A stretch of 53,614 nt of DNA. Origin: Ruminococcus sp. GTDB lineage: Bacteria > Bacillota > Clostridia > Oscillospirales > Ruminococcaceae. The position numbers were made by a program, and so were the translations under genes. The stretch is from NCBI GenBank assembly GCA_017478965.1, contig JAFVCV010000018.1:1-53614 (forward strand). Reading direction: 5' to 3'. Below, one piece after another: positions 16,921 to 33,914 of this stretch; position 1 is the first letter of the stretch; every line of letters starts with the position of its first letter. The notes beneath the pieces were generated by a model. That model was not told the DNA's origin. It made no database searches and worked only from the letters and a program-made list of their open reading frames with translations.

Positions 16921-16949
16921 ATTATATAACATACTTTCCCCGTTGTCAA
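16921..16949 (-). promoter_or_regulatory. Consensus sigma-A promoter of the ttcA-like gene
   Basis: On the minus strand TTGACA (16949-16944), 17-base spacer, TATAAT (16926-16921): a perfect match to consensus. Confidence 0.88.
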
Positions 16950-17012
16950 CTTTTCATTATACATATGCCTGGAGAAAAATATTAACAAAATGTAAAAAAC
17001 ACCGCAGCCCTG

Positions 17013-17041
17013 TTGACGGGGGAGGGGAAAGCTGTTATAAT
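17013..17041 (+). promoter_or_regulatory. Sigma-A promoter of the fur/zur-znu operon
   Basis: TTGACG at 17013-17018, 17-base spacer, TATAAT at 17036-17041. The transcription start would fall near 17048, right at the Fur-like box. Confidence 0.8.
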
Positions 17042-17044
17042 ATC

Positions 17045-17067
17045 AAATTGAGAGTTGTTTTCAATTT
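17045..17067 (+). promoter_or_regulatory. Fur/Zur-like operator
   Basis: Perfect 7-bp inverted repeat AAATTGA (17045-17051) and TCAATTT (17061-17067). The core 15-mer at 17049-17063 matches the 7-1-7 Fur-family pattern TGATAAT-n-ATTATCA at 10 of 14 positions. It overlaps the predicted transcription start, so a bound regulator would block the operon. The neighbouring zinc transporter makes Zur the likely ligand. Confidence 0.65.
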
Positions 17068-17086
17068 CAAAAAGGAGGGACTTGAA

Positions 17087-17488
17087 ACGGCTAAGTATAA
17101 TACTGTCCAGAAGGAGGAGCTGCTGGAGTTCCTGGCACAGCACAGGACCGAGGCGTTTACGGTCAGGCAGATATGCGAGCTGATGAAGGCTGACGGGGGA
17201 CTGAAGAAGGCGCCGGGGGAAAGCACTCTTTACAGGCTCATCAAGGAGCTGGTGGAGAGCGGCACGGTCAAAAGGACCGTCAAGGGCAGCAGCAGGCAGT
17301 TTGTTTATCAGCTCACCGACGGAGAAAGCTGTCATCATCATCTGCATATGAAGTGCGTGAGCTGCGGAAAGCTTTTTCACATGGACGATGAGGAGAGCAG
17401 TGAGCTGGTGGAAAGGATACTCAAAAGCGACAGCTTTGAGATAGACAGCAGCGCTGTGCTGCCAGGCAAGTGCGGAGAATGCAGATGA
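17087..17488 (+). CDS. Fur-family regulator, probably Zur, with apparent ACG start
   Basis: 133 residues with the Fur layout: an N-terminal winged helix (to about 80, with STLYRLIKELVESG as recognition region), the metal-sensing HHHLHMKC segment, and two CxxC structural zinc pairs (CVSC and a C-terminal CGEC). The next genes encode a zinc importer, so it most likely represses zinc uptake. The ribosome site AAAGGAGG (17070-17077) points to codon ACG at 17087, where the expected M-A-K-Y start would need ATG. The only in-frame standard start upstream, TTG at 17048, coincides with the predicted transcript start and precedes the ribosome site. The frame is open further upstream but lacks a sensible start. 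Confidence 0.82.
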   Translation, partial: TAKYNTVQKEELLEFLAQHRTEAFTVRQICELMKADGGLKKAPGESTLYRLIKELVESGTVKRTVKGSSRQFVYQLTDGESCHHHLHMKCVSCGKLFHMDDEESSELVERILKSDSFEIDSSAVLPGKCGECR

Positions 17489-17549
17489 GGGTCAGAGCTT
17501 TTCCGGGAAAGCAAAAGTAAGAACGGTCAATGAGAAGTAAGAAAGTAAG

Positions 17550-18548
17550 ATGAAAGTTATGAAAGCGAAAAAGATCTTTACAGCGGCTATTCTATGCGCC
17601 GCTTTATGCTCCGCTATGACTGGCTGCGGCGGGTCGGACAAAAAGGACAGCCCGCAGAAAAGCGGGCTGAACGTGGTGTGTACAAGCTTTGCGGCCTACG
17701 ACTGGACCTGTGAGATAGTGGGGGACCACAGCGATGAGGTGGAGGTGACTTACCTGCTGGAGAGCGGGGTGGACCTTCACAGCTATCAGCCTTCGGTGGC
17801 GGATATCACAAAGATATCTGACTGCGACGTGTTTATTTATGTCGGCGGTGAGTCTGAGAGCTGGACGGAGGACCTTTTGAAGGAGGCCCGCAATAAGGAC
17901 ATGAAGACTCTCAGGCTCCTTGACATCGGTACTGCGGTCGAGGAGGAGCTCAAAGAGGGCATGGAGGCCGAGAGCGAAGAAGAGCCTGAAGACGGGCACG
18001 GGGAAGAAACAGAATATGACGAGCACGTCTGGCTGTCGCTGAGAAATGCGCAGGTCTTCTGTGAGGAGATAGCGGACCTTCTGGGCGAAGCCGACAGCGA
18101 AAACGCTGAGGACTATAAGTCTAACGCTCAGAGCTACTGCGGAAAATTAGGTGCTCTTGACACAAAGTTCACGGAGCTTTTCAGCGAGCACCCGGGTACT
18201 GTGCTGATCTTCGGGGACAGGTTCCCTTTCAGGTATTTCTGCGCCGACCATGGGGTGGACTACTATGCGGCTTTTGCAGGCTGCTCGGCTGAGACAGAGG
18301 CCAGCTTTGAGACGGTGACGTTTCTGGCCGGCAAGGTCGATGAGCTTGATGTGGGGACCGTTTTCACCATAGAGAATTCTGACGGGCGGGTAGCTCAGTC
18401 TATCGTACAGACTGCTGAGAAGAGCGGCGTCAGGATAGCGCAGCTGGATTCCGTCCAGAGCGTCAGCCGGCAGGATATGGACAATGGCAGGAACTATCTT
18501 TCAATAATGGAAAAGAATTATGACACTTTAAAAGAGGCTTTGGGATAA
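17550..18548 (+). CDS. znuA: Zinc ABC transporter substrate-binding lipoprotein
   Basis: 332 residues of the ZnuA/TroA cluster A-I binding proteins, capturing zinc outside the membrane. Signal peptide with lipobox ending at Cys26 (MTGCG). Metal-ligand regions: His77 in DLHSYQPS and His159 in DEHVWLS. An acidic, His-containing loop (about 137-158, many Glu) precedes the second ligand, a hallmark of zinc-type members. The third usual His is replaced: the segment reads GDRFPFRYF at 222-230 where others have HDAFGYF, so coordination may use Asp or the C-terminal Glu in FTIENSD. Follows the Fur-family gene by 61 bases; overlaps znuC by one base. Confidence 0.92.
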   Translation: MKVMKAKKIFTAAILCAALCSAMTGCGGSDKKDSPQKSGLNVVCTSFAAYDWTCEIVGDHSDEVEVTYLLESGVDLHSYQPSVADITKISDCDVFIYVGGESESWTEDLLKEARNKDMKTLRLLDIGTAVEEELKEGMEAESEEEPEDGHGEETEYDEHVWLSLRNAQVFCEEIADLLGEADSENAEDYKSNAQSYCGKLGALDTKFTELFSEHPGTVLIFGDRFPFRYFCADHGVDYYAAFAGCSAETEASFETVTFLAGKVDELDVGTVFTIENSDGRVAQSIVQTAEKSGVRIAQLDSVQSVSRQDMDNGRNYLSIMEKNYDTLKEALG

Positions 18549-19306
18549 TGAGTAAAAAGCAAGTCAGCAGCGGTGAAAAACAAAAGCCAAAGCAGATAGA
18601 ATGTAAAAATGCGGCCCTTGGGTATGAGGGCAGTGCGGTGGTGGAGGGGCTGGACTTCTCGGTCAGGAGCGGGGACTATCTTTGTATCCTGGGGGAGAAC
18701 GGTTCGGGCAAGAGCACGCTGATAAAGGCGCTGTTAGGCCTTCAGAGCCTGATGTCCGGGACCATCGAATGGACCGGCGGGCTGACACCAAAGGAGATAG
18801 GATATCTTCCTCAGCAGACCTTAGTCCAGAGGGATTTTCCCGCATCGGTCAGGGAGATAGTTATAAGCGGCTGTCTCTCGAAGACCGGGCTGCGGCCGTT
18901 TTACAATAAGGCCGAGAAAAAGCTTGCAGCGGACAACATGGAAAGGCTGGGCATAACCGAGCTTTCGGGCCGGTGCTACAGGGAGCTTTCCGGAGGTCAG
19001 CAGCAGAGGGTGCTGCTGGCCAGGGCGCTTTGCGCCACGGGCAAGCTCCTGCTCCTTGATGAGCCGGTGACGGGCCTTGACCCCAAGGCCCAGATGGACC
19101 TCTACGAGCTGATAGCGGGGCTTAACAGGCAGGGGATAACCGTGATAATGGTCTCCCACGACGTCAATGCGGCGGTCAGATATGCCAGCCATATCCTTCA
19201 CATCGGCAGCCGCAGACAGCTGTTCTTCGGGGAGAAGAACGCTTATATGGACAGCAGGATAGGCAGGACCTTCTTAGCGGAGGAAGGCGGTGAGGACGTT
19301 GGCTGA
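18548..19306 (+). CDS. znuC: Zinc ABC transporter ATPase
   Basis: 252 residues, ATP-binding subunit of the zinc importer. Walker A GENGSGKST, Q-loop in GYLPQQ, signature LSGGQQQRV, Walker B LLLLDEP and switch His in MVSHD are all intact. Its ATG overlaps the znuA stop (TAATG) and its end overlaps the permease start by 17 bases, so the three are translationally coupled. Confidence 0.94.
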   Translation: MSKKQVSSGEKQKPKQIECKNAALGYEGSAVVEGLDFSVRSGDYLCILGENGSGKSTLIKALLGLQSLMSGTIEWTGGLTPKEIGYLPQQTLVQRDFPASVREIVISGCLSKTGLRPFYNKAEKKLAADNMERLGITELSGRCYRELSGGQQQRVLLARALCATGKLLLLDEPVTGLDPKAQMDLYELIAGLNRQGITVIMVSHDVNAAVRYASHILHIGSRRQLFFGEKNAYMDSRIGRTFLAEEGGEDVG

Positions 19307-20213
19307 GATGATAGACACCCTGGCGGGGTATTTTGAATTTTCCATCATCAGATATGCGCTGATAGTAGGACTTCTCATAGCCCTTTGCTCCTCTCTGCTG
19401 GGAGTGACTCTGGTGCTGAAAAGATTTTCGTTCATCGGCGACGGGCTTTCCCATGTGGCCTTCGGGGCCATGTCGATCGCAACGGTACTGGAGGTCACGC
19501 TCAAGGCGGCCAAGTACAGCGACAATAAGCTGGCCAGGGCCATAGTGGACGTCATCGACCGCAGCAGCAGCATGGCGGTCATCCTTCCCATTACCATACT
19601 GGCGGCGGTACTGCTTTTGAAGACCGGTCAGAACACCCGGATAAAGGGCGATGCTGCGGTAGCCATGATCTCTGTGGGGGCCTTAGCTGTGGGGTATATG
19701 CTCATAAACCTGTTCTCGGCCTCGGCTAACGTCACAGGGGACGTTTGCAGCACACTGTTCGGCTCGACCCTCATACTTACCCTGACCAAGGAGGAGGTCT
19801 GGCTCTGCGTTATAATGGCGGCGATCGTCATTGCCACATTCCTGGTTTTCTACAACAAGATATTCGCTGTGACCTTTGATGAGAATTTTGCCCGGGCCAC
19901 CGGCGTGCAGTCAGGGGCATACAATCTGCTGATAGCGGTAATAACGGCGTTCATAATCGTGCTGGCCATGAATCTGGTCGGCTCGCTGCTCATATCGGCG
20001 CTTATAATCTTTCCGGCACTGTCGGCAATGAGGGTGTTCAAAAGTTTCAGGAGCGTCATAATCTGCTCGGCGGTCATCTCTGTCATCTGCGCCGGGGCGG
20101 GAATGATAGCCTCGATCTTGTTCTCAACTCCGGTGGGGTCCACCATCGTGATCGCTGACATAGCTGTGTTTGCTGTTTTCAGCCTGATCTCGTCTGTATT
20201 AAGGAGGGCGTAA
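19290..20213 (+). CDS. znuB: Zinc ABC transporter permease
   Basis: 307 residues with about eight membrane helices, ABC-3 family permease of metal importers. The family signature GDGLSHVAFGA and a GDVCSTLFGS coupling segment are visible. The start was taken as GTG at 19290 because GGAGG ends 6 bases upstream; TTG at 19299 and ATG at 19308 are alternatives. Compared with short ZnuB proteins, it has a longer loop near residue 70-90 (KYSDNKLARAIVDVIDRS). It is followed at once by a lipoprotein gene whose ATG begins one base after the stop. Confidence 0.92.
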   Translation: MRTLAEMIDTLAGYFEFSIIRYALIVGLLIALCSSLLGVTLVLKRFSFIGDGLSHVAFGAMSIATVLEVTLKAAKYSDNKLARAIVDVIDRSSSMAVILPITILAAVLLLKTGQNTRIKGDAAVAMISVGALAVGYMLINLFSASANVTGDVCSTLFGSTLILTLTKEEVWLCVIMAAIVIATFLVFYNKIFAVTFDENFARATGVQSGAYNLLIAVITAFIIVLAMNLVGSLLISALIIFPALSAMRVFKSFRSVIICSAVISVICAGAGMIASILFSTPVGSTIVIADIAVFAVFSLISSVLRRA

Positions 20214-20214
20214 G

Positions 20215-20823
20215 ATGAAGATTAAAATAATGTCGGCTGCTGTTCTGGCAGTGATGATGCTCGGCGGCTGCGGCGATACCTCGAAGGTGGATAAAATAAT
20301 CGCTGACAGCAGGGCCGCCGAAGATGTTGAGCTGAATGCTGCGGACAAGGCGGTGGCAGATCAGGCCGAAAGGGAGGCCATGAACTATCTGCTGAGTTCC
20401 GAGTCTGCCTTTGTGGCAGATAGCCCTGAGGGACCTGAGATATCGCAGGAGGACCTTAAAAACGGTGATATCGACATCGACCTGGTGGGCGTTAACTCCA
20501 ACATCACCTATGCGCAGGTGTTCGCCATGGTGAATTCGCCGGAGGAGTATGTGGGGAAGACTGTCAGAGTTGAGGGGACCTTCGCCCATACCGTTGACGG
20601 AGGCAAGGATTACTATGCGGTGTTCATAGCCGACGCCGCTGCCTGCTGTCAGCAGGGAATGGAATTCGTCAGGGCAGGGGAGTACGCTTTCCCACAGGAT
20701 TACCCGGCGGTGGATACGGATATCCAGGTCACCGGGACCTTTGCGACCTATGATGAGAACGGCTACACCTACTGCACTCTGGAAAATGCAGTCATGACGG
20801 ACTCAGTGAAGAGTGAAAACTGA
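20215..20823 (+). CDS. Zinc-operon lipoprotein with OB-like domain and Cys-Cys motif
   Basis: 202 residues. Signal peptide with lipobox LGGC (Cys19), a charged helical region (25-75), then a beta-rich domain from about 95 (TYAQVFAMVNSPEEYVGKTVRVEGTF ... VTGTFATYDENGYTYCTLENA). The strand ends and an ADAAACCQQGMEF segment resemble the OB-fold half of DUF1980/YcgQ-type proteins, some of which are linked to zinc homeostasis. Fourth gene after the regulator and directly adjoining znuB, so it is probably repressed with the importer. A role as an extracellular zinc-handling accessory is inferred; not a named family. Confidence 0.72.
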   Translation: MKIKIMSAAVLAVMMLGGCGDTSKVDKIIADSRAAEDVELNAADKAVADQAEREAMNYLLSSESAFVADSPEGPEISQEDLKNGDIDIDLVGVNSNITYAQVFAMVNSPEEYVGKTVRVEGTFAHTVDGGKDYYAVFIADAAACCQQGMEFVRAGEYAFPQDYPAVDTDIQVTGTFATYDENGYTYCTLENAVMTDSVKSEN

Positions 20824-20861: not shown

Positions 20862-20895
20862 GCCCCCTTCCCCGGCCTGCGGAAGGGGGCTTTTT
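20862..20895 (+). terminator. Intrinsic terminator of the znu operon
   Basis: Perfect 10-bp stem GCCCCCTTCC (20862-20871) / GGAAGGGGGC (20881-20890), then five Ts. Confidence 0.93.
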
Positions 20896-20936: not shown

Positions 20937-20965
20937 TTGACAAAACAGTGTTTGTATGTTACAAT
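20937..20965 (+). promoter_or_regulatory. Sigma-A promoter of the EAL-domain gene
   Basis: TTGACA at 20937-20942, 17-base spacer, TACAAT at 20960-20965. The start codon is 56 bases downstream. Confidence 0.82.
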
Positions 20966-21020: not shown

Positions 21021-23117
21021 ATGAATTACAGCTGCAATGAAAAGGACCTGAGGGTCATCGGCAGTTTCGCCGAGAAAGCGTCCTTCGCCAAGAACGAAAG
21101 GGACCTCAGACAGGCGGAGGAGGAATACTGGAACAGGCTGAGCCGGGAGGCGCAGACTGAGGAAAGCGTTATCGACCTCTGGCACAACATTGTTGCCATG
21201 AGTTTTGATCTGGTGCGGCACAAAGCTGCCAGCGCTGACAATTCCAGGGCCAGGAGGATACTTGACCTGGGGCCTGAGGAAAGGGAGATCTTTGAGCAGG
21301 TAGGGGACATCATTGATGAGAACGCCTTTACCTACCATTTTCAGCCCATCGTCGATGCTTCCAGCGGGGAGATATATTCCTATGAGGCACTGATGAGGCC
21401 TGAGGGCAGGGAGGGCATAACGCCCTATACCATATTGAAGTATGCAGAGCTTTCTGACAGGCTGGGTGAGATAGAGAAACTCACTTTCCTGAACGTTCTG
21501 GGAGCGGTGGAAAATGAGGGCGGCAGATTTTTCGGCAGGCCGGTGTTCATCAACAGCATACCCAATGTCAGGCTAAGCGACGAGGTCAGCGGCAGGATAA
21601 ACGCATTGCTCAAAAAGCACTCCGGGGACGTGGTGGTCGAGATCACCGAGGGGGCTGAGTATGACGAGTATCAGCTCAGTGCGGTCAAGGAAAGGTACGG
21701 GGTACTGGACATCAAGCTGGCCATCGACGACTACGGCACCGGGTTCTCAAATGTTAAGAACCTGCTGAGATATATGCCGGAGTATGTGAAGATAGACAGG
21801 GAGCTTCTCAGCGGCATAAGCAAGGACCTGAAGAAAAAGCACTTTGTCAGGGAGATAGTCGATTTCTGCCACGACAACGGCATACTGGCTCTGGCGGAGG
21901 GCGTGGAGACCTCGGAGGAGCTGAGAACGGTCATACTCTTCGGGGTGGACCTTATTCAGGGCTATTATACTGCCCGGCCCTCTGCTGAGGTCATCGGGTC
22001 GATACCCTCGGAGATAAAGCAGGAGATAGTGCTTTACAGGCAGGAGCGGCAGGACGGCAAGGCCAAGCAGATATACAAGTCGGCTCCGGGGGAGCACGTC
22101 ATGCTGGAAAGGCTTGTCAAGGAGAGCTACAGCTGTGTGTTCGTAGGCGAGGAATGCAGCGGCACCACAGTGACGGTCATGGGAAGGACAAATCTTGACA
22201 CTGATATACATATAGTCACCGCACCGGGCTTTCAGGGTACCCTTGCCATTGAGAACGTGCATCTGTCAAATGTCAAGGGCAGGCCCTGCATAGACATAGG
22301 CGAGGGCAGCCGGACGGAGCTGAAGATAATAGGTGAGAGCAGGCTGATGCACACAGGCATAAGGGTGCCGGAGAAGAGTGCGCTGATGGTAACGGGACAG
22401 GGGAGCGTCTTCATCACCCTGGACGGTACGGATTATTACGGCATCGGAAACGATCTGTCTTCCAGAAACGGCAGCATCACCATGTGCCATAACGCACTTA
22501 TCGAGATGGAGAGCATAAGCCAGTCAGGGGTGCTCATCGGCTCCGGGCTGGGGGGCGAGATATCCATAAACAGCGGAAAATACGTACTCAGGTCCGGGGG
22601 CAAGCACTGCGTGGGCATCGGAGCCTATAACGGCGATGTTGACCTGAGACTGAGAGAGTGCGACATCGAGGCCAACATCTCCGGGGAGCTGGTGACGGTG
22701 CTCGGGTCTATGAACGGCAAGGCGCACATAGATATCAGGAATTCCAGCTTCCGCAGTCATGCCAGCGGTGAGGTCGGAGTGGCCATAGGGACGGTCAGGG
22801 GCAGCTTTGCGAAAATCGCTGTGGACTGCACCAATACGGTCATGACACTGCTGTGCGACGATCTGGCGGCCATGGGTTCGTTTGACGGGGATTCGGATAT
22901 CGTCATCGAAAGGGCCTTAGTCAGGATAAACGCCGGAGGTAACGACGCCATGGCCTTTGGCGGCAGCAAGGGCGAGACCTCGCTCATTATCCACTACGCA
23001 GACTGTGCGGTGAACTTCACTACCACCAACCAGAGGATAACCAAGGCGGTGTTCAAGGAAAGTTCGGATATGCCAAGGTGCAGAGTGATACTCAACGGTG
23101 AGGAAACTTATCTTTGA
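21021..23117 (+). CDS. EAL cyclic-di-GMP phosphodiesterase with beta-helix-like C-terminal domain
   Basis: 698 residues, no signal peptide or membrane helix. Residues 1-95 are helical and charged. An EAL domain follows (about 100-345) with all catalytic elements visible: EAL at 122-124, the Asn of FINSIPN, the Glu of EITEGAEY, DDYGTGFSN, KID, the Glu of AEGVET and the Gln of IQGYY, so hydrolysis of cyclic-di-GMP to pGpG is expected. Residues about 365-698 are short repeated beta strands with many Gly, Asn and Ser at turns (GSITMCHNALIEMES, GEISINSGKYVLRSGG, GKAHIDIRNSSFRSH), the look of a right-handed parallel beta-helix or Cthe_2159-type carbohydrate-binding fold. The start has GAAAGGGAAA upstream; single-gene unit. 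A cytoplasmic sugar- or polymer-responsive phosphodiesterase is the simplest reading (inference). Confidence 0.88.
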   Translation: MNYSCNEKDLRVIGSFAEKASFAKNERDLRQAEEEYWNRLSREAQTEESVIDLWHNIVAMSFDLVRHKAASADNSRARRILDLGPEEREIFEQVGDIIDENAFTYHFQPIVDASSGEIYSYEALMRPEGREGITPYTILKYAELSDRLGEIEKLTFLNVLGAVENEGGRFFGRPVFINSIPNVRLSDEVSGRINALLKKHSGDVVVEITEGAEYDEYQLSAVKERYGVLDIKLAIDDYGTGFSNVKNLLRYMPEYVKIDRELLSGISKDLKKKHFVREIVDFCHDNGILALAEGVETSEELRTVILFGVDLIQGYYTARPSAEVIGSIPSEIKQEIVLYRQERQDGKAKQIYKSAPGEHVMLERLVKESYSCVFVGEECSGTTVTVMGRTNLDTDIHIVTAPGFQGTLAIENVHLSNVKGRPCIDIGEGSRTELKIIGESRLMHTGIRVPEKSALMVTGQGSVFITLDGTDYYGIGNDLSSRNGSITMCHNALIEMESISQSGVLIGSGLGGEISINSGKYVLRSGGKHCVGIGAYNGDVDLRLRECDIEANISGELVTVLGSMNGKAHIDIRNSSFRSHASGEVGVAIGTVRGSFAKIAVDCTNTVMTLLCDDLAAMGSFDGDSDIVIERALVRINAGGNDAMAFGGSKGETSLIIHYADCAVNFTTTNQRITKAVFKESSDMPRCRVILNGEETYL

Positions 23118-24655: not shown

Positions 24656-27403
24656 TTACTGCTTTTTCAGTTTCATGACCTTGTATACAAAGACCTCTAC
24701 TGAGATCAGCGCCGCAAGAGCGCCGCCCACTATCAGTGCGATAAGGCCGGTCTTTGATGAGCTTTCCTTATCCTCCGGCTTGCTGTCGGTCTTTTGGTCA
24801 GGGGCGCTCTCACTTGTATCCCGTTCGCTCTTATCCTCGCTGGGGCTTTCGCTGTTTCCGGCGGTGCTGCTTTCCTTATTCTCCTCCTGCGATGAAGAAG
24901 TCCCCTCCGCATCGGCGGTCCCGTTCTCGTTGGACTGACCGTCGCCGCCGTTATTTATCCTTTCTGCGGTGTTGACGCTGCCGATCTCTATGCCGCCGTT
25001 TTCCGCCGCCGCAAAGCCTGCGATCCAGGCTAAGGATGCGTTCCAGTTTATCGTACACTCGTTTACGGACCATGCCTCGATATGGTCAAGGTAACATTTC
25101 TGCGGGGCTATCTGACCTTTTTTCCAGCCGGAGCCCTGTACCCAGGGGTCCTGCATACCTGAATTCGGTCCGCCGGCCATTACTCCGCAGGGAGCTTTGG
25201 GATAAGCGGCATCTATCTGGTTTGACCACCAGCGGTGATGGGGGTTTTCGGTGCTGTGAGTGCCGTAGCCGGTCACATAGCTCTGGTCCATGGCGTTGCG
25301 GCCCAGGAGGTAGTCCAAGCCACCGATGACGCCGTCAAGATATTTGTCCTCCCCGGTGAGGAGATAGCCGTAGGCCATCACCACCGAGTTGTCCGCCACG
25401 AAGGAATTGGAACCCCACATATAACCCTTGTCACTGTCATTATAGCTTATGGTGCTGGAGCCGTAGGGGACTCCGTAGCCCTGGCTGTCCTCCAGTTCAA
25501 GATAGTGGTCGGCAGCGGCCTTTATGCTGTCCAGGGCGGCCTTTCTGTCCTTATCCTCAAAGCCTTTGCCGCTGATGGCGGCGCTGAGGGTGCCAAGGCC
25601 GGCGGTGTTGCCCCAGTCAAAGCTGCCAACGGAGTCAACGCTCTCGCCGCCCCCCAGGCTGGTTGGCATTTTCATAAAGAAGTCCGACCCGGCTGCGTCC
25701 TTGTAATAATCCTCCTTGCCGGTGGTGATATAAAGCTCGCAGGCGGCCCAGTAGAACTCGTCGCTCACGTCATCGTCACCGTAGGCACCTCCGCCCACGG
25801 ATTCGTCCAGGGGGGCGTACATGGAAGGGTGCTTTTTAGCCGCTGCATAGGCCTCCTCGGCGGCCTTCAGGCATTTGTCAGAAAAGCTCTTGTCGATGTT
25901 TTCCCAGAGCCTTGCAGCCTGAGCGCCGCAGGCAGCAAGGTTAAGGGTGGCCGCAGTGGTGGGCGGCTTGATTATGCGCTTTTCTTCGTCCTGCGCCGGG
26001 GCGGTGCCGAGGGCGGTCCACTTCTCGTCGTGAGCCTTGTGGTATGCCATGCCCGCAAAGTCGCCGGTCTGAACGATCATTTTCAGCATCCATTCCATTT
26101 CCCACCGGGCCTCGTCCAGCAGGTCGGGATAGCCGTTATTGTTCTCCGGCAGGTTCATGGAGCCGTCCTCGTAGCCGTCGCTGAAACCGTATTTCACAGC
26201 GCTCTCATACTGGTTCTGCATCAGCCATACCGACAGGCCGCCGTTGACCACATACTTGCCGTGGTCCCCGGCGTCATACCATCCGCCGGTAACGTCCTGG
26301 CTGCCGCTGGAGCCTGTGTAGCCCCAGGTCTGCTGTATCTCGGCGTTGTCAGTGGTATGACCTGCGGCCCTGGCAAGGGAATTCTTGTCCCCGGAGGTTA
26401 TGAAGTCCGCCTTTATCTCTATGCCGCTGCGGTTCTGATAAAAATAGTTCAGCGCATCGTAGAGCAGGGCGCTGTACATGGTGCTGCCGCCTATCTGGAA
26501 TTCCCGGCTCTTTGCGCCGTTTGCGGCCTCGATATGGTAGGTACCGCTGTCTCTGAAGTCTGAAAAGTCAAAAATATGGACGGTGTCGCCGGAATCCGGG
26601 TCCTCACCGAAGTAGGTGCTCTTGCCGGAATAGACCGACTTGCCCCCCTGGTCGATAAGCTCAAGCTCCACGCTTTCCTTATCGCTGCAAATAAGGGTGG
26701 CCTGCTTTTTCCTGTCGGTGAAATAGCCCACCTGGTTCGTGAGGATCTCCGCCCTTTTCCATACCTCAGGGGCCTTATAGTCGTTCTCGTCGCTGGTCAG
26801 GTCCACCAGCGACATATTGTCGAAGGTTATGACCGTCCCCACGGGAAAACAGTCCCCCTGGGTATACTGCCCCTCGCCGCCCAGATGGAAAGCCCATTCT
26901 GCCACATCAAGACTCTGTCCGGCGGTGAATGTCAGGTCCACCACTTTTTTCTCATTGGCGCCTATCTGTATGGGGTCCCAGTTGCTGTCAAGGTCCCACT
27001 GGCCAGTGGCCATATTGTGCCATATCTCTACATCGCCTTCGAGATTTCCGATCTTGGTATAGTACTTTCCCGAATGTGACGGCGTTATCTCATAGTGGAC
27101 CTTATACTGGTGGCCGGAAACGATCTTCAGTCCCCTGTGCCGGAACTGGCAGTCCCACCTGTCCTCGCCGCCTCTGGAGGCTCCGCCCGGATTGAGGATA
27201 GTTATTTTATAAACCCCGTCGCTTATCTCAAAATCCATTTCACCCGGACCTGACTCGCAGATATGCCAGGGAAGGCCCACGCCGTTCTCAAAATCGGTCT
27301 GGCCCAGCTGTTCGCCGGCGAAAACGTCAATGACCGGCACTACAGTCCCGGCAGCAATAACCGCCGCACAGCCAGCGCTCAGTGCTCTTCTGATAGCTTT
27401 CAT
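24656..27403 (-). CDS. GH9 cellulase, CBM4/9-Ig-GH9, membrane-anchored
   Basis: 915 residues. Signal peptide (1-29); an N-terminal carbohydrate-binding module of the CBM4/9 type (about 35-195, with strands such as YKVHYEITPS and FDNMSLVDL); a CelD_N Ig-like domain (about 215-300, starting ILTNQVGYF); and a GH9 (alpha/alpha)6 catalytic domain (about 305-775). Catalytic signs: the GGWYDAGDHGKY aspartates, the HHRWW histidine site, and the C-terminal NEC-INWNASLAW glutamate. An acidic Ser/Glu-rich linker (about 790-880) leads to a C-terminal membrane helix and a Lys-rich tail, so the enzyme is held on the cell surface and has no dockerin. Start set at MKAIRR, giving a clean signal peptide. Acts on cellulose or related beta-glucans. 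Confidence 0.94.
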   Translation of the reverse strand: MKAIRRALSAGCAAVIAAGTVVPVIDVFAGEQLGQTDFENGVGLPWHICESGPGEMDFEISDGVYKITILNPGGASRGGEDRWDCQFRHRGLKIVSGHQYKVHYEITPSHSGKYYTKIGNLEGDVEIWHNMATGQWDLDSNWDPIQIGANEKKVVDLTFTAGQSLDVAEWAFHLGGEGQYTQGDCFPVGTVITFDNMSLVDLTSDENDYKAPEVWKRAEILTNQVGYFTDRKKQATLICSDKESVELELIDQGGKSVYSGKSTYFGEDPDSGDTVHIFDFSDFRDSGTYHIEAANGAKSREFQIGGSTMYSALLYDALNYFYQNRSGIEIKADFITSGDKNSLARAAGHTTDNAEIQQTWGYTGSSGSQDVTGGWYDAGDHGKYVVNGGLSVWLMQNQYESAVKYGFSDGYEDGSMNLPENNNGYPDLLDEARWEMEWMLKMIVQTGDFAGMAYHKAHDEKWTALGTAPAQDEEKRIIKPPTTAATLNLAACGAQAARLWENIDKSFSDKCLKAAEEAYAAAKKHPSMYAPLDESVGGGAYGDDDVSDEFYWAACELYITTGKEDYYKDAAGSDFFMKMPTSLGGGESVDSVGSFDWGNTAGLGTLSAAISGKGFEDKDRKAALDSIKAAADHYLELEDSQGYGVPYGSSTISYNDSDKGYMWGSNSFVADNSVVMAYGYLLTGEDKYLDGVIGGLDYLLGRNAMDQSYVTGYGTHSTENPHHRWWSNQIDAAYPKAPCGVMAGGPNSGMQDPWVQGSGWKKGQIAPQKCYLDHIEAWSVNECTINWNASLAWIAGFAAAENGGIEIGSVNTAERINNGGDGQSNENGTADAEGTSSSQEENKESSTAGNSESPSEDKSERDTSESAPDQKTDSKPEDKESSSKTGLIALIVGGALAALISVEVFVYKVMKLKKQ

Positions 27404-27463
27404 CTCCCGATACCCCCATTTTTTATCATTCTCTTTTTTCAAGTGACTTTTGTTACAAAAACA

Positions 27464-27495
27464 GCGGGCAGCCTTTTCGCAGCTGCCCGCCTGTA
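27464..27495 (-). terminator. Intrinsic terminator of the zinc-ribbon gene pair
   Basis: Stem GCGGGCAGC (27464-27472) / GCTGCCCGC (27482-27490). On the minus strand it is followed by TGTTTTTG, fitting the end of the gene that stops at 27513. It lies within the leader of the GH9 gene. Confidence 0.85.
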
Positions 27496-27512
27496 ACGGC
27501 TCAGTGCCGTGT

Positions 27513-28313
27513 CTATTCAAGCTCTATAGACGAAAATATGTTGTCAAAGGTGTCGCTCATGCGGCTCTTGATGTTCTCACTGCAGGTGCAGACGAATACC
27601 AGCAGCTTGTCATTGTGCAGGAATGTCCTTACCTCAGCATAATTGTCATAGGACTTCTCATCGTTATAGGTAAAGCTCATCCGGTTGTTGACCTTGTCTC
27701 CCAGCTTGTACCTTACCAGCTCCAGCTCAAAGGCGTCGTTCATGTCGCTGAGTATCTGACGGTCCAGGTCCTTTATGGCACTGTTGGCGTCAAGATAGTT
27801 GCTGTAGGTCTCAAAATCTCCGGTCTCGCCCTTGTTGAGCGCCTGAGGGTAGAGGGTGAACACGTCGTATTCTATAATGACGAATTCCATGGACCCGTTG
27901 GAATAGGCCCGGCAGCTGTCATAAACGTCCACTGCAAAGATGTCGTTAGTCTCCTCTTTCAGGGACACAGGCAGCTCTACGCTGAACCCCTTGAAATAAC
28001 TGATCGCAGTCTTCCTGTCATAATATACCTTCACTGCGATAAAGATGACCACCATGACGATCAGCAGTATAAGGCTGAAAAGCTTCAGATCCATGCCGGC
28101 TATAAGGCTGGCCTTCTTTTCCTTTACTGTTACGCCGCCGCTGAATTTATTAAAGTCGGGCGTATAGCCGTTGAGCCTGGGAGCATCTTTTTTCTCTGCC
28201 TTTTCCGCTGTATTTTCCGTGGCTTTTATGCCCATTTCTATCTTCCGGGTGCCGCAGGAAGGGCAGGCCTCAAGGCCGTCCTCAAATTCCTTACCGCAAA
28301 CAGTGCATTTCAT
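27513..28313 (-). CDS. Zinc-ribbon, single-pass membrane protein (paralogue A)
   Basis: 266 residues. An N-terminal zinc ribbon (CxxC near 3-6 and CPSC near 18-21), a polar linker, one membrane helix (about 76-95), then a domain of about 165 residues outside the membrane that begins FKGFSVELPVSLKEE and ends near IFSSIELE. The C-terminal domain aligns in layout with the next gene (strand pattern, FTYNDEKSYDNYAEVRTFL, LLVFVCTCSENI). Start chosen at MKCTVC with AAAGGGGA upstream. Probably co-transcribed with its paralogue, 31 bases away. Function unknown; the two-sided layout suggests signalling or envelope sensing. Confidence 0.82.
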   Translation of the reverse strand: MKCTVCGKEFEDGLEACPSCGTRKIEMGIKATENTAEKAEKKDAPRLNGYTPDFNKFSGGVTVKEKKASLIAGMDLKLFSLILLIVMVVIFIAVKVYYDRKTAISYFKGFSVELPVSLKEETNDIFAVDVYDSCRAYSNGSMEFVIIEYDVFTLYPQALNKGETGDFETYSNYLDANSAIKDLDRQILSDMNDAFELELVRYKLGDKVNNRMSFTYNDEKSYDNYAEVRTFLHNDKLLVFVCTCSENIKSRMSDTFDNIFSSIELE

Positions 28314-28344
28314 AAAGCCGTCCCCTTTCGTCAAAGCAAAGCTT

Positions 28345-29127
28345 TTACTTGAACGTTACCGAATCGAATATCTTGTTGAACTTTGAACTGAGTTTGCCGG
28401 AGTCGGCATCATCGCACATACAGATGAGCAGATACATTCCGTCCTTTTTCAGCACCGCCTTCATATCCACATATGTCTTGGCTGATTTGGAGTCGTTATA
28501 GCTGAACTTCGCACGGTTAGCTGACACAGACTTCTCCTTGTAATTGTCAAGGGTCCCCATCATGGCCATCAGCACCTGTACATAGGCTTCCTCAGTTTCC
28601 TTTATCTCGTCCTCAGACATGGAGTTCATATCATCGGCGATGTCTGAAAGGTCATATTTTATGTAGCAGAACTGAAGGTCCCTGTTGCCGTAGGTGTGAG
28701 CGCCGTCCATACCGGTCAGCGAATCGAACATACTGGTAGTTTCCTTGCAGTTCATGGGGAGCTTCACGGTGATGTCACCGATCTTGAAATTCTTCATCAT
28801 GAACTTAGGAACGAACAGCACTCCGAGCACTACCACGAGCGCCACTATGAACCCTATGAGCCTGCCGGTGTCGCCGTTCATCAGGCCCCTGCTCCGGGAG
28901 GGCGGTATGCTGTTGGCGCCGAACCCGCCGTTATAGCTGGTGTCGCCCAGACCGCTGCCGTAGCCATAGCTGTTGTTATTGCCATAGCTGTAGCCGCCCT
29001 GGGTATTGCTGCCGTAGCTGTTCTGGCTCTGACCAAAGGCAGGTCCCATCTCGCTGACCTTGGTGCCGCAGTTATTGCAGATCTGATCGTTCGGGCCGAT
29101 CTCGGCCCCGCAAATAGTACACTTCAT
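28345..29127 (-). CDS. Zinc-ribbon, single-pass membrane protein (paralogue B)
   Basis: 260 residues with the same plan as the next gene downstream: zinc ribbon CTIC/CNNC (residues 3-20), a Gly/Ser/Asn/Tyr-rich low-complexity linker (about 35-80), a membrane helix (about 90-106) and a C-terminal domain starting FKIGDITVKLPMNCKE and containing FSYNDSKSAKTYVDMKAVL and LLICMCDDADSG. The pair arose by tandem duplication followed by strong divergence of the linker. It is 118 bases downstream of pnp on the same strand. Function unknown. Confidence 0.82.
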   Translation of the reverse strand: MKCTICGAEIGPNDQICNNCGTKVSEMGPAFGQSQNSYGSNTQGGYSYGNNNSYGYGSGLGDTSYNGGFGANSIPPSRSRGLMNGDTGRLIGFIVALVVVLGVLFVPKFMMKNFKIGDITVKLPMNCKETTSMFDSLTGMDGAHTYGNRDLQFCYIKYDLSDIADDMNSMSEDEIKETEEAYVQVLMAMMGTLDNYKEKSVSANRAKFSYNDSKSAKTYVDMKAVLKKDGMYLLICMCDDADSGKLSSKFNKIFDSVTFK

Positions 29128-32047: not shown

Positions 32048-33007
32048 TCAGATAGCGGCTTTCCTTCGGCGCTTTATCTCATACATACGCTCATCGCTTA
32101 TCTTTATAAGGTCCTCCACCTGGGCATGGTCGCTGCTCTTAGCGGTATAGACCCCCACGCTCGCAGCTATCCTGTATGGCTTTTTCTTGACGCTCTCCAG
32201 CTGTTCAAGCCCTTCATTGATGCTCCTTGCTACGGCGGCGGCCCTTTCCTCATCACAGTCCGGCAGGAAGATATAGAACTCGTCTCCGCCGGTCCTGCCT
32301 GCGATATCGTTCTCCCCGCAGCTCCTTGCGATGACGTTTGCCACGGACTTTATGGCGAAGTCTCCCTCGGTATGTCCGTATACATCGTTTATCCTTTTGA
32401 GCCCGTCCATATCCACCACGATGGCGCTGACCAGCTCACCGTCCCGCTTGTGATAGAAAGCCTCGGCGGACTTGCTCTCAAAGCCGCTCCTGTTCAGCAG
32501 TCCGGTCAGGCCGTCCCTTATGCTGGCACTTTCCAGGCACTTTATCAGCTCTGCGATATTATTGCTCCTCAGTATCAGTTCCAGCGATATGGACATATTT
32601 ATCATCCACATCTTGTAATACTCGTTGAAAGGACCTTCGCCGGTCATTGCCACAAAGGAATAGCCGAAGGTGTGGTCGCTGCTGTAAAGCCCGGTTATGT
32701 AGTAGAACTGCGGCTCTTCGCTTCCGCAGTCGGGGATCAGCTCGCTGACGTCGATATCTCCCTCAGGCTTCTTGATCTTGCCGGTCTTGTCTATCCAGAT
32801 AGCCGGTCTCACTTTTCTGGTAGGCCTTTTGATCGTAGTCTCATAGGCAGTCCTGCCCTCACCGTCCACATAAGCCATATAGCCGAAATGCTTATAGCCG
32901 CCGAAATTGTGTGCCATTTCAAAGAAGGTCCGGCTGAGCATATCTATCTCCTGGACGCTGTTCAGCCTCAGCATTACGGCCTCGGCATTATTGAGACTGT
33001 AGTTCAT
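32048..33007 (-). CDS. GGDEF diguanylate cyclase, 3' part of a frameshifted receptor
   Basis: 319 residues from the first ATG of this frame. The C-terminal half is a GGDEF domain (from about 160: DGLTGLLNRSGFE, VVDMDGLKRINDVYGHTEGD) with an intact RTGGDEF active site and no obvious RxxD inhibitory site at the usual position. The N-terminal part is a helical/GAF-like linker. The open frame continues upstream of this ATG, through an AASCGCCK motif, to about 33,137, exactly where the upstream gene needs to shift. The ATG lacks a good ribosome site (only GAGG one base away), so separate translation looks poor. Predicted to make cyclic-di-GMP if expressed. Confidence 0.85.
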   Translation of the reverse strand: MNYSLNNAEAVMLRLNSVQEIDMLSRTFFEMAHNFGGYKHFGYMAYVDGEGRTAYETTIKRPTRKVRPAIWIDKTGKIKKPEGDIDVSELIPDCGSEEPQFYYITGLYSSDHTFGYSFVAMTGEGPFNEYYKMWMINMSISLELILRSNNIAELIKCLESASIRDGLTGLLNRSGFESKSAEAFYHKRDGELVSAIVVDMDGLKRINDVYGHTEGDFAIKSVANVIARSCGENDIAGRTGGDEFYIFLPDCDEERAAAVARSINEGLEQLESVKKKPYRIAASVGVYTAKSSDHAQVEDLIKISDERMYEIKRRRKAAI

Positions 33008-33050
33008 GCCTCTTCTCAGGTCCCCCAGCTTTGTGATGCGTGCGGCCTCC

Positions 33051-33914
33051 TTACGGTAATCCGTCTTGCAGCAGCCGCAGCTGGCGGCGTATATGTTGCG
33101 GGGGATTATATAGCTCTCGCTCTCCTCCTCGCCCTTTATTTATCATCCTTCTTGCTATCTGTGCTCCAAGCCTGTCCACAGTGGAGAGCCTTGGTATGAA
33201 CTCCTGCCCCTCGTCCACTCCGTCAAAACCGGATACACACACGTCCTCAGGGACCATCAGGCCCAGCTTTTTAAATCCGTTGCACAGTGACATGGCCATA
33301 AAATCATTTGCGCAGACCACAGCCTGTGCCTTGTGTTCTTCAGAAGAAAAGAACTCAGCGGCGGCATCGCCTTTATTGAACCAGAAATCGCCCTCAAAAA
33401 CGCCCACGCCCTCCTCGGGCAGCCCGCACTCCTTCATGGCTGATCTGAAAGCGTCCAGTCTGCCAAGGGCATCGGCCCGGTCGAAGGGACCGCACATAAA
33501 GCCTATCCTGTCAAACCCGTGGACATTGACGAAATGCCTTACCATTTCTTTTATACCGTAGGTCTCGTCCACGGTCAGAGAACGTTTCTGCCAGATATTG
33601 TTCATCATTATAACAGGGCATTCAGCCCTGTTTGTGATCTCATTATAAATAGCGTCGGAAACGCCTTCGGCATTGAAACCGTCCTCATCGTATATTATCC
33701 CGTCCAGCTCGCCGAAGGGCACTATGTCCAGGATCTTCAGTTCGTTGGCGCCGTAATCGCTGACTCTGGGACTGATGTCGCCTAAGAAATTGAAATAGAG
33801 TATGTTGTACCCCAGATCTTTAGCGGCGATATTGATGTCCCTGCAAAAATCCCTGTGATAATCGGCAGTGATACTGCACTCAAAGAAGGCGATGGTCTTT
33901 AGTGAATTTATCAT
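33051..33914 (-). CDS. LacI/PBP1-type ligand-binding domain, 5' part of a frameshifted GGDEF receptor
   Basis: 287 residues as read. A periplasmic-binding-protein-like sensor of the LacI/GalR type I fold (AFFECSITADYHRDFCRDINIAA; IGFMCGPFDRADALGRLDAF; VVCANDFMAMSLCNGFKKLGL; VCVSGFDG) without the N-terminal DNA-binding helix-turn-helix and without a signal peptide. Around 33,134-33,136 the frame appears to slip: after MINKG the predicted protein becomes RGGEREL and soon stops, whereas the +1 frame reads GEEESESYIIPRNIY-AASCGCC and joins the GGDEF gene. Removing one A from the coding-strand AAA run restores a single frame of about 621 residues. A fused sugar-sensing diguanylate cyclase is the inferred ancestral product. 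Confidence 0.8.
   Translation of the reverse strand: MINSLKTIAFFECSITADYHRDFCRDINIAAKDLGYNILYFNFLGDISPRVSDYGANELKILDIVPFGELDGIIYDEDGFNAEGVSDAIYNEITNRAECPVIMMNNIWQKRSLTVDETYGIKEMVRHFVNVHGFDRIGFMCGPFDRADALGRLDAFRSAMKECGLPEEGVGVFEGDFWFNKGDAAAEFFSSEEHKAQAVVCANDFMAMSLCNGFKKLGLMVPEDVCVSGFDGVDEGQEFIPRLSTVDRLGAQIARRMINKGRGGERELYNPPQHIRRQLRLLQDGLP

What the first reader, a model, noticed from the sequence alone, without database searches (positions are those of the whole stretch)
21021..23117. Cyclic-di-GMP phosphodiesterase fused to a beta-helix/carbohydrate-binding-like domain
An intact EAL active site is followed by over 300 residues of short repeated strands, normally seen in secreted polysaccharide-binding proteins, yet no signal peptide or membrane helix is present. 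A cytoplasmic sensor of a polymer, or a new effector module for c-di-GMP signalling, is possible.
Basis: partly seen in the sequence, partly recalled or inferred. Interest (0 to 1): 0.75.

Follow-up and report, generated by a model that had tools for sequence, protein, structure and literature searches.

The report
c-di-GMP-degrading enzyme with beta-helix tail
This gene encodes an enzyme that breaks down the bacterial signal molecule cyclic-di-GMP, joined to a coiled protein module of a kind usually found outside cells; the same pairing recurs in related gut bacteria, so it looks like an inherited design, but what the tail does is not known.

Summary
The 698-aa ORF at 21021-23117(+) has an EAL domain (Pfam E=4.8e-48) with intact active-site motifs, followed by about 350 residues with a 28-residue repeat. 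Profile comparison links the tail to secreted GIGGG-type beta-helices (99.4%; reversed controls at most 15.1%) and, over a shorter stretch, to Cthe_2159 (96.6%). Pfam and NCBIfam do not cover it. It is not a one-off: the own genome has four, and 61 of 297 genomes of the family have a strong match. The tail-bearing EALs belong to one EAL clade that also holds 35 tail-less members. The N-terminal parts differ between members (short region, LacI-type sugar-binding domain with or without GGDEF, weak GGDEF, membrane hairpin), while EAL plus tail stays. Of 31 tail columns conserved at 80%, 29 are Gly or I/L/V/P, so an enzymatic tail is unlikely. Best reading: a phosphodiesterase whose tail is a rigid docking arm; saccharide sensing is possible but less favoured. 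No structure model could be made: the fold is inferred from sequence.

The parts
21021..23117 (+). Whole gene, 698 aa, EAL phosphodiesterase with C-terminal beta-helix-like tail
   Evidence: ORF; Pfam; whole-length relatives, 37-43% identity
21021..21311 (+). N-terminal region, residues 1-97; no known family, looks helical by eye (not predicted)
   Evidence: no Pfam match except chance-level ones with E about 0.02; median pairwise identity 0.12 in the aligned family
21312..21980 (+). EAL domain, residues 98-320
   Evidence: Pfam PF00563 E=4.8e-48; motif residues conserved
21981..22130 (+). Linker and start of the tail, residues 321-370, with the conserved Tyr352
   Evidence: alignment A3; Tyr352 in 90% of 58 tails
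22131..22445 (+). First part of the tail, residues 371-475, shared with secreted GIGGG proteins (ITLENV...GIRVPE...GxGxL pattern)
   Evidence: hhalign alignment covers tail columns 49-227
22446..23114 (+). Seven-coil repeat region, residues 476-698, IG-Gly at 476, 507, 534, 562, 590, 619, 647
   Evidence: 28-residue period; coil rows and hydrophobic register
20937..20965 (+). Promoter-like site TTGACA-17-TACAAT, 11 of 12 matches, 56 bases before the start codon
   Evidence: consensus scan, 6 found in the region against 2.1 expected; not evidence of function

Best explanation
A cytosolic c-di-GMP phosphodiesterase with a constant output unit, EAL plus beta-helix tail. Shown from sequence: complete EAL motifs; a 28-residue repeat tail homologous to secreted GIGGG beta-helix modules; tail kept under purifying selection; N-terminal parts exchanged between members. 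Inferred: the N-terminal part sets the activity of the EAL; the tail is a rigid, non-enzymatic arm that docks the enzyme to a partner (for example a diguanylate cyclase or a c-di-GMP effector), so that c-di-GMP is removed locally. The module was probably recruited by fusion from a cell-surface beta-helix in an ancestor within this class of bacteria.
For: EAL motifs 52 of 52 (E122 51 of 52). Tail homology 99.4%, controls 13.4 and 15.1%. Tail columns conserved at 80%: 31, of which 20 Gly and 9 I/L/V/P. Different N-terminal parts before the same EAL-tail unit. Tail length about 350 residues in the members read. Tail dN/dS 0.13, 0.07 and 0.25 in the three closest informative pairs. Separate GGDEF ORFs in the flanks of 9 of 57 loci, 12 ORFs against 4.4 expected from the own genome's density, five of them PBP-GGDEF proteins beside the gene.
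Against: No structure, no partner and no assay. 48 of 57 loci have no separate GGDEF ORF in the flank examined; the window's own nearest is about 9 kb away. The tail is absent from 35 members of the same EAL clade and evolves faster than the EAL. Within subfamilies polar residues are conserved, mostly in the first half of the tail, which would also fit a binding site for a small ligand.
Confidence: 0.45

Rival explanations
1. Cytosolic saccharide or polymer sensor: the tail binds an imported oligosaccharide or another polymer and thereby controls the phosphodiesterase.
For: Homology to Cthe_2159 (96.6% over 95 columns), whose members bind cellulose and polygalacturonic acid (passages of PMC6712302). 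LacI-type sugar-binding domains occur in relatives and in neighbouring cyclases. Titles of 4 of 7 named relatives state rumen, omasum or cecum. A GH9 cellulase lies close by in the window.
Against: The tail is kept with different N-terminal parts, also where a sugar-type sensor is already present; no polar or aromatic column except Tyr352 and Asn440 reaches 80% in all 58 tails. The closest kin of the tail are GIGGG proteins whose ligand I do not know.
Confidence: 0.25
2. Assembly module: the beta-helices stack or pair and hold the enzyme in the dimer or higher oligomer that EAL activity needs.
For: Fixed coil number in the members aligned; conserved Gly/aliphatic skeleton with little conserved polar surface; EAL enzymes commonly work as dimers (recalled, not from a call).
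Against: Tail-less members of the same EAL clade exist; no direct evidence.
Confidence: 0.2
3. Passenger: a fused surface module with no role of its own in the cytosol.
For: Lower identity than EAL (0.20-0.31 against 0.48 median); missing in 35 clade members.
Against: Whole tail kept across families f1, f31 and f46 of the class; dN/dS well below 1 in the close pairs.
Confidence: 0.07

Closest known systems
EAL-domain c-di-GMP phosphodiesterases (PF00563)
   Same: Domain well above the Pfam cut-off, catalytic motif residues present
   Different: About 350-residue C-terminal beta-helix-like tail that no Pfam or NCBIfam model covers
PBP-GGDEF-EAL proteins of the same EAL clade, with and without tail (for example L018, L071, L196-L230)
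   Same: Same EAL clade; L018, L071 and L098 have PBP, GGDEF, EAL and tail
   Different: The window protein has only about 97 residues before the EAL, without PBP or GGDEF; the 35 tail-less members end within 60 residues after the EAL
Secreted GIGGG proteins, Pfam Beta_helix_3 (PF18889) type
   Same: Same order of motifs over 172 columns, 99.4%
   Different: Signal peptides by eye, no EAL; Beta_helix_3 passes its cut-off in 2 of 4 of them scanned (L126, L127) and in no tail
Cthe_2159 (PF14262; PDB 4peu/4phb)
   Same: Weaker homology of the first part of the tail, 96.6% over 95 columns; best PDB profile hit, E=0.044
   Different: Secreted, in L093 and L094 with dockerin; no tail passes the Pfam cut-off, one of 58 matches at E=0.025

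Membership tests
EAL c-di-GMP phosphodiesterase (PF00563) | Domain match above the curated cut-off | tested here: met
   164 bits against 31.3
EAL c-di-GMP phosphodiesterase (PF00563) | Catalytic motif residues (EAL, N, E, DD, K, E, Q; positions recalled) | tested here: met
EAL c-di-GMP phosphodiesterase (PF00563) | Hydrolysis of c-di-GMP | not testable with these tools
   needs an assay
Beta_helix_3 / GIGGG secreted beta-helix (PF18889) | Pfam match above cut-off | tested here: not met
   no match in the window tail or in any of 58 tails at E<=0.1
Beta_helix_3 / GIGGG secreted beta-helix (PF18889) | Homology by profile comparison | tested here: met
   99.4%, reversed controls 13.4 and 15.1%; the secreted set was partly chosen because the tail profile had found it
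Beta_helix_3 / GIGGG secreted beta-helix (PF18889) | Exported protein | tested here: not met
   no signal peptide or membrane helix by hydropathy
Cthe_2159 (PF14262) | Pfam match above cut-off | tested here: not met
   no match in the window tail; 1 of 58 tails at E=0.025
Cthe_2159 (PF14262) | Homology by profile comparison | tested here: inconclusive
   96.6% over 95 columns only; PDB profile hit E=0.044
Cthe_2159 (PF14262) | Binding of cellulose or polygalacturonate | not testable with these tools
   needs a binding assay
Parallel beta-helix fold | Predicted or solved three-dimensional structure | not tested
   structure prediction busy, then switched off

The most novel reading that the evidence does not exclude
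A family of cytosolic c-di-GMP phosphodiesterases in gut Clostridia reads saccharides, or another polymer, inside the cell through a recruited cell-surface beta-helix, so that a fold used to hold plant fibre outside the cell reports on it inside and sets c-di-GMP.
Probability: 0.15. Interest if true: 0.8.

Novelty: new variant of a known kind. Interest (0 to 1): 0.5.

Why it matters
If right, a surface beta-helix module has been moved into the cytosol and inherited with one clade of phosphodiesterases, giving a testable answer to what makes one of many such enzymes act locally. The own genome has 16 EAL and 25 GGDEF matches but no PilZ match, so its c-di-GMP outputs are open. The tail also deserves its own family model, since the two domain libraries searched leave it blank.

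Tried and rejected
Considered less likely or rejected: disordered tail (period, register, selection); enzymatic tail (no polar set conserved through the family); chance fusion or assembly artefact (four paralogues in the genome and whole-length relatives elsewhere); exported protein (hydropathy); conserved operon (no neighbour shared by most of the 17 loci compared; a GGDEF-containing group in 4, an ABC ATPase in 5, and L057/L059 share several genes).

A mended idea: I first thought that this EAL clade and the tail always go together. Searches showed 35 tail-less members; in the tree the tail needs three changes, two of them forced, so one gain with losses, or more than one gain.

No use: c-di-GMP-I riboswitch search in the genome found none, but its controls were silent too; Rfam on the window had no match at gathering scores; the terminator-like hairpin at 20874 is one of 2 found against 2.2 expected, so it is no evidence.

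Literature: asked directly for EAL with beta-helix and c-di-GMP (2 and 3 papers); no title or abstract start describes such a fusion. Searches asked about Cthe_2159, about c-di-GMP in gut taxa, about GGDEF with LacI-type domains. Passages were read in PMC12750041, PMC6712302 and PMC9540692; no paper was read whole. InterPro and CDD were not available, and PHROGs and PADLOC were not searched.

Full report
What is there. The ORF at 21021-23117(+) encodes 698 residues. Pfam finds EAL at 98-320 (E=4.8e-48; the only other listed match, RepB_C at E=0.19, is chance level). The tail alone (361 residues) has no match up to E=10 in Pfam, NCBIfam or, as a single sequence, the PDB. Active-site motif residues are kept in 52 of 52 aligned sequences (E122 in 51 of 52, one gap). 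Hydropathy shows no signal peptide or membrane helix. A promoter-like site lies just upstream.

What the tail is. The profile of 58 tails (A3) matches itself best at offset 28, then 57 and 56; 0 of 300 column shuffles reach the peak. For the window sequence alone 28 is also best, but the best of 500 shuffles exceeds it. Coils start at an IG motif and have hydrophobic residues at register 2, 8, 10, 15, 17, 25 and 27, as three short strands per turn would give. hhalign against ten segments of eight secreted GIGGG proteins gave 99.4% (E 6.7e-22, 172 columns), with reversed controls of 13.4 and 15.1%; against eight Cthe_2159 segments it gave 96.6% over 95 columns, with controls of 0.6 and 1.5%. 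The GIGGG set and two of the eight Cthe_2159 segments had been found with the tail profile itself, so they are the nearest secreted relatives, not a random choice. Of four GIGGG proteins scanned, two pass the Pfam Beta_helix_3 cut-off; L093 and L094 are Cthe_2159 with dockerin. The tail profile's best PDB hit is Cthe_2159 (4peu/4phb) at E=0.044, followed by arginases at E about 1, which look like chance. Among 58 tails scanned singly, no Pfam family is matched by more than one.

How widespread. The own genome has four tail proteins, all with EAL, out of 16 EAL matches. In 297 genomes of the family 65 match at E<=0.001, in 23 of 126 genera; in four of the 65 (G051, G112, G139, G181) the only match is weak (E 2e-7 to 2e-4) and to a secreted-looking protein, leaving 61. 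In 391 genomes of the class 19 match at E<=1e-5, 13 of them strongly; of 30 places the 18 with E<1e-60 all have EAL just upstream, while of the 12 weaker places nine were found again by the local profile and have no EAL; five of these nine lie in one gene of G471. In 398 genomes of the phylum 3 match at E<=1e-10, all of this class. The seven named relatives are Lachnospiraceae, Eubacterium, Ruminiclostridium and Clostridiales records.

Architecture. In one search, 90 of 97 ORFs with a tail match also have EAL (some genes held twice). The seven others are L020 and L063 (one contig-end gene held twice), L104 (contig end), an out-of-frame remainder in L060, and three short secreted proteins L093-L095. 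Before the EAL there may be a region of about 90 residues (window type), a LacI-type sugar-binding domain without (L066) or with GGDEF (L018, L071, L098), or about 300 residues with no (L017) or weak (L089) GGDEF match. In ten of the last kind there are N-terminal membrane helices: eight of ten score as two helices, and two (L083, L087) as one segment that reads as two by eye. Few positive charges between the helices (0-2) and 2-5 after them suggest, but do not prove, that the rest stays in the cytosol. Four other ORFs with hydropathy peaks of 1.8-2.2 were not analysed further.

History. 51 tail-bearing EALs separate from 14 others (11 of the 12 other EAL regions fetched from the own genome, plus three) with 100/99 support; the program warned of long branches. 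A search with the EAL alone then found 35 relatives without tail; in all 35 the EAL lies within 60 residues of the end of the ORF. With them included, 51 tail and 35 tail-less EALs form one clade (100/100), within which the tail needs three changes, two forced. So the tail is old and mostly inherited, but dispensable. It is less conserved than the EAL (median identity 0.20-0.31 against 0.48). In the three closest informative pairs dN/dS is 0.13, 0.07 and 0.25 for the tail and 0.09, 0.07 and 0.07 for the EAL; in the other pairs listed, nearer saturation, the tail has 0.21-0.84 and one undefined value.

How it probably works. N-terminal parts vary while EAL plus tail stays, which puts the tail on the output side. 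Of 31 tail columns conserved at 80%, 20 are Gly, 9 are I, L, V or P, one Tyr and one Asn: no sign of an enzyme and no family-wide ligand site. Subfamilies (14 window-type and 13 PBP-type tails) do conserve polar residues, mostly in the first half, so a lineage-specific site remains possible. Separate GGDEF ORFs lie in the flanks of 9 of 57 loci, 12 ORFs against 4.4 expected; the profile was seeded partly from these loci and the expectation uses the own genome's density, so this is a modest hint. In L049, L073, L077, L078 and L080 the neighbour is a PBP-GGDEF protein. I commit to a docking arm (0.45), with saccharide sensing (0.25) and assembly (0.2) as rivals.

Limits. No structure model and therefore no fold search. 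The window is itself a whole contig (C29) of a draft genome, whose habitat I do not know. cannot be interpreted.

Noticed in passing
window 32048-33914 (-): A GGDEF ORF (32048-33007) and a LacI-type sugar-binding ORF (33051-33914) lie side by side in different frames; in L049 the two domains are in one ORF. Either two genes or a split one; only described.
   Followed up: partly
window 16943-20823 (+): FUR-family regulator, ZnuA-type binding protein, ABC ATPase, ABC-3 permease and a small lipoprotein-like ORF: a zinc-uptake operon just upstream of the finding.
   Followed up: no
window 24656-27520 (-): GH9 cellulase with CelD_N and CBM_4_9 domains and a hydrophobic C-terminus that looks like a membrane anchor.
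   Followed up: no
window 27513-29127 (-): Two neighbouring, similar-looking ORFs with an N-terminal zinc-ribbon-like start and one hydrophobic stretch.
   Followed up: no
own genome G000: 25 GGDEF and 16 EAL matches but no PilZ match (control genomes rang in 5 of 14), so the c-di-GMP receptors are not identified.
   Followed up: no
L073, L077, L078, L080: PBP-GGDEF genes directly downstream (0-152 bases) of EAL-tail genes of the kind without a sugar-binding domain: a possible cyclase/phosphodiesterase pair.
   Followed up: partly
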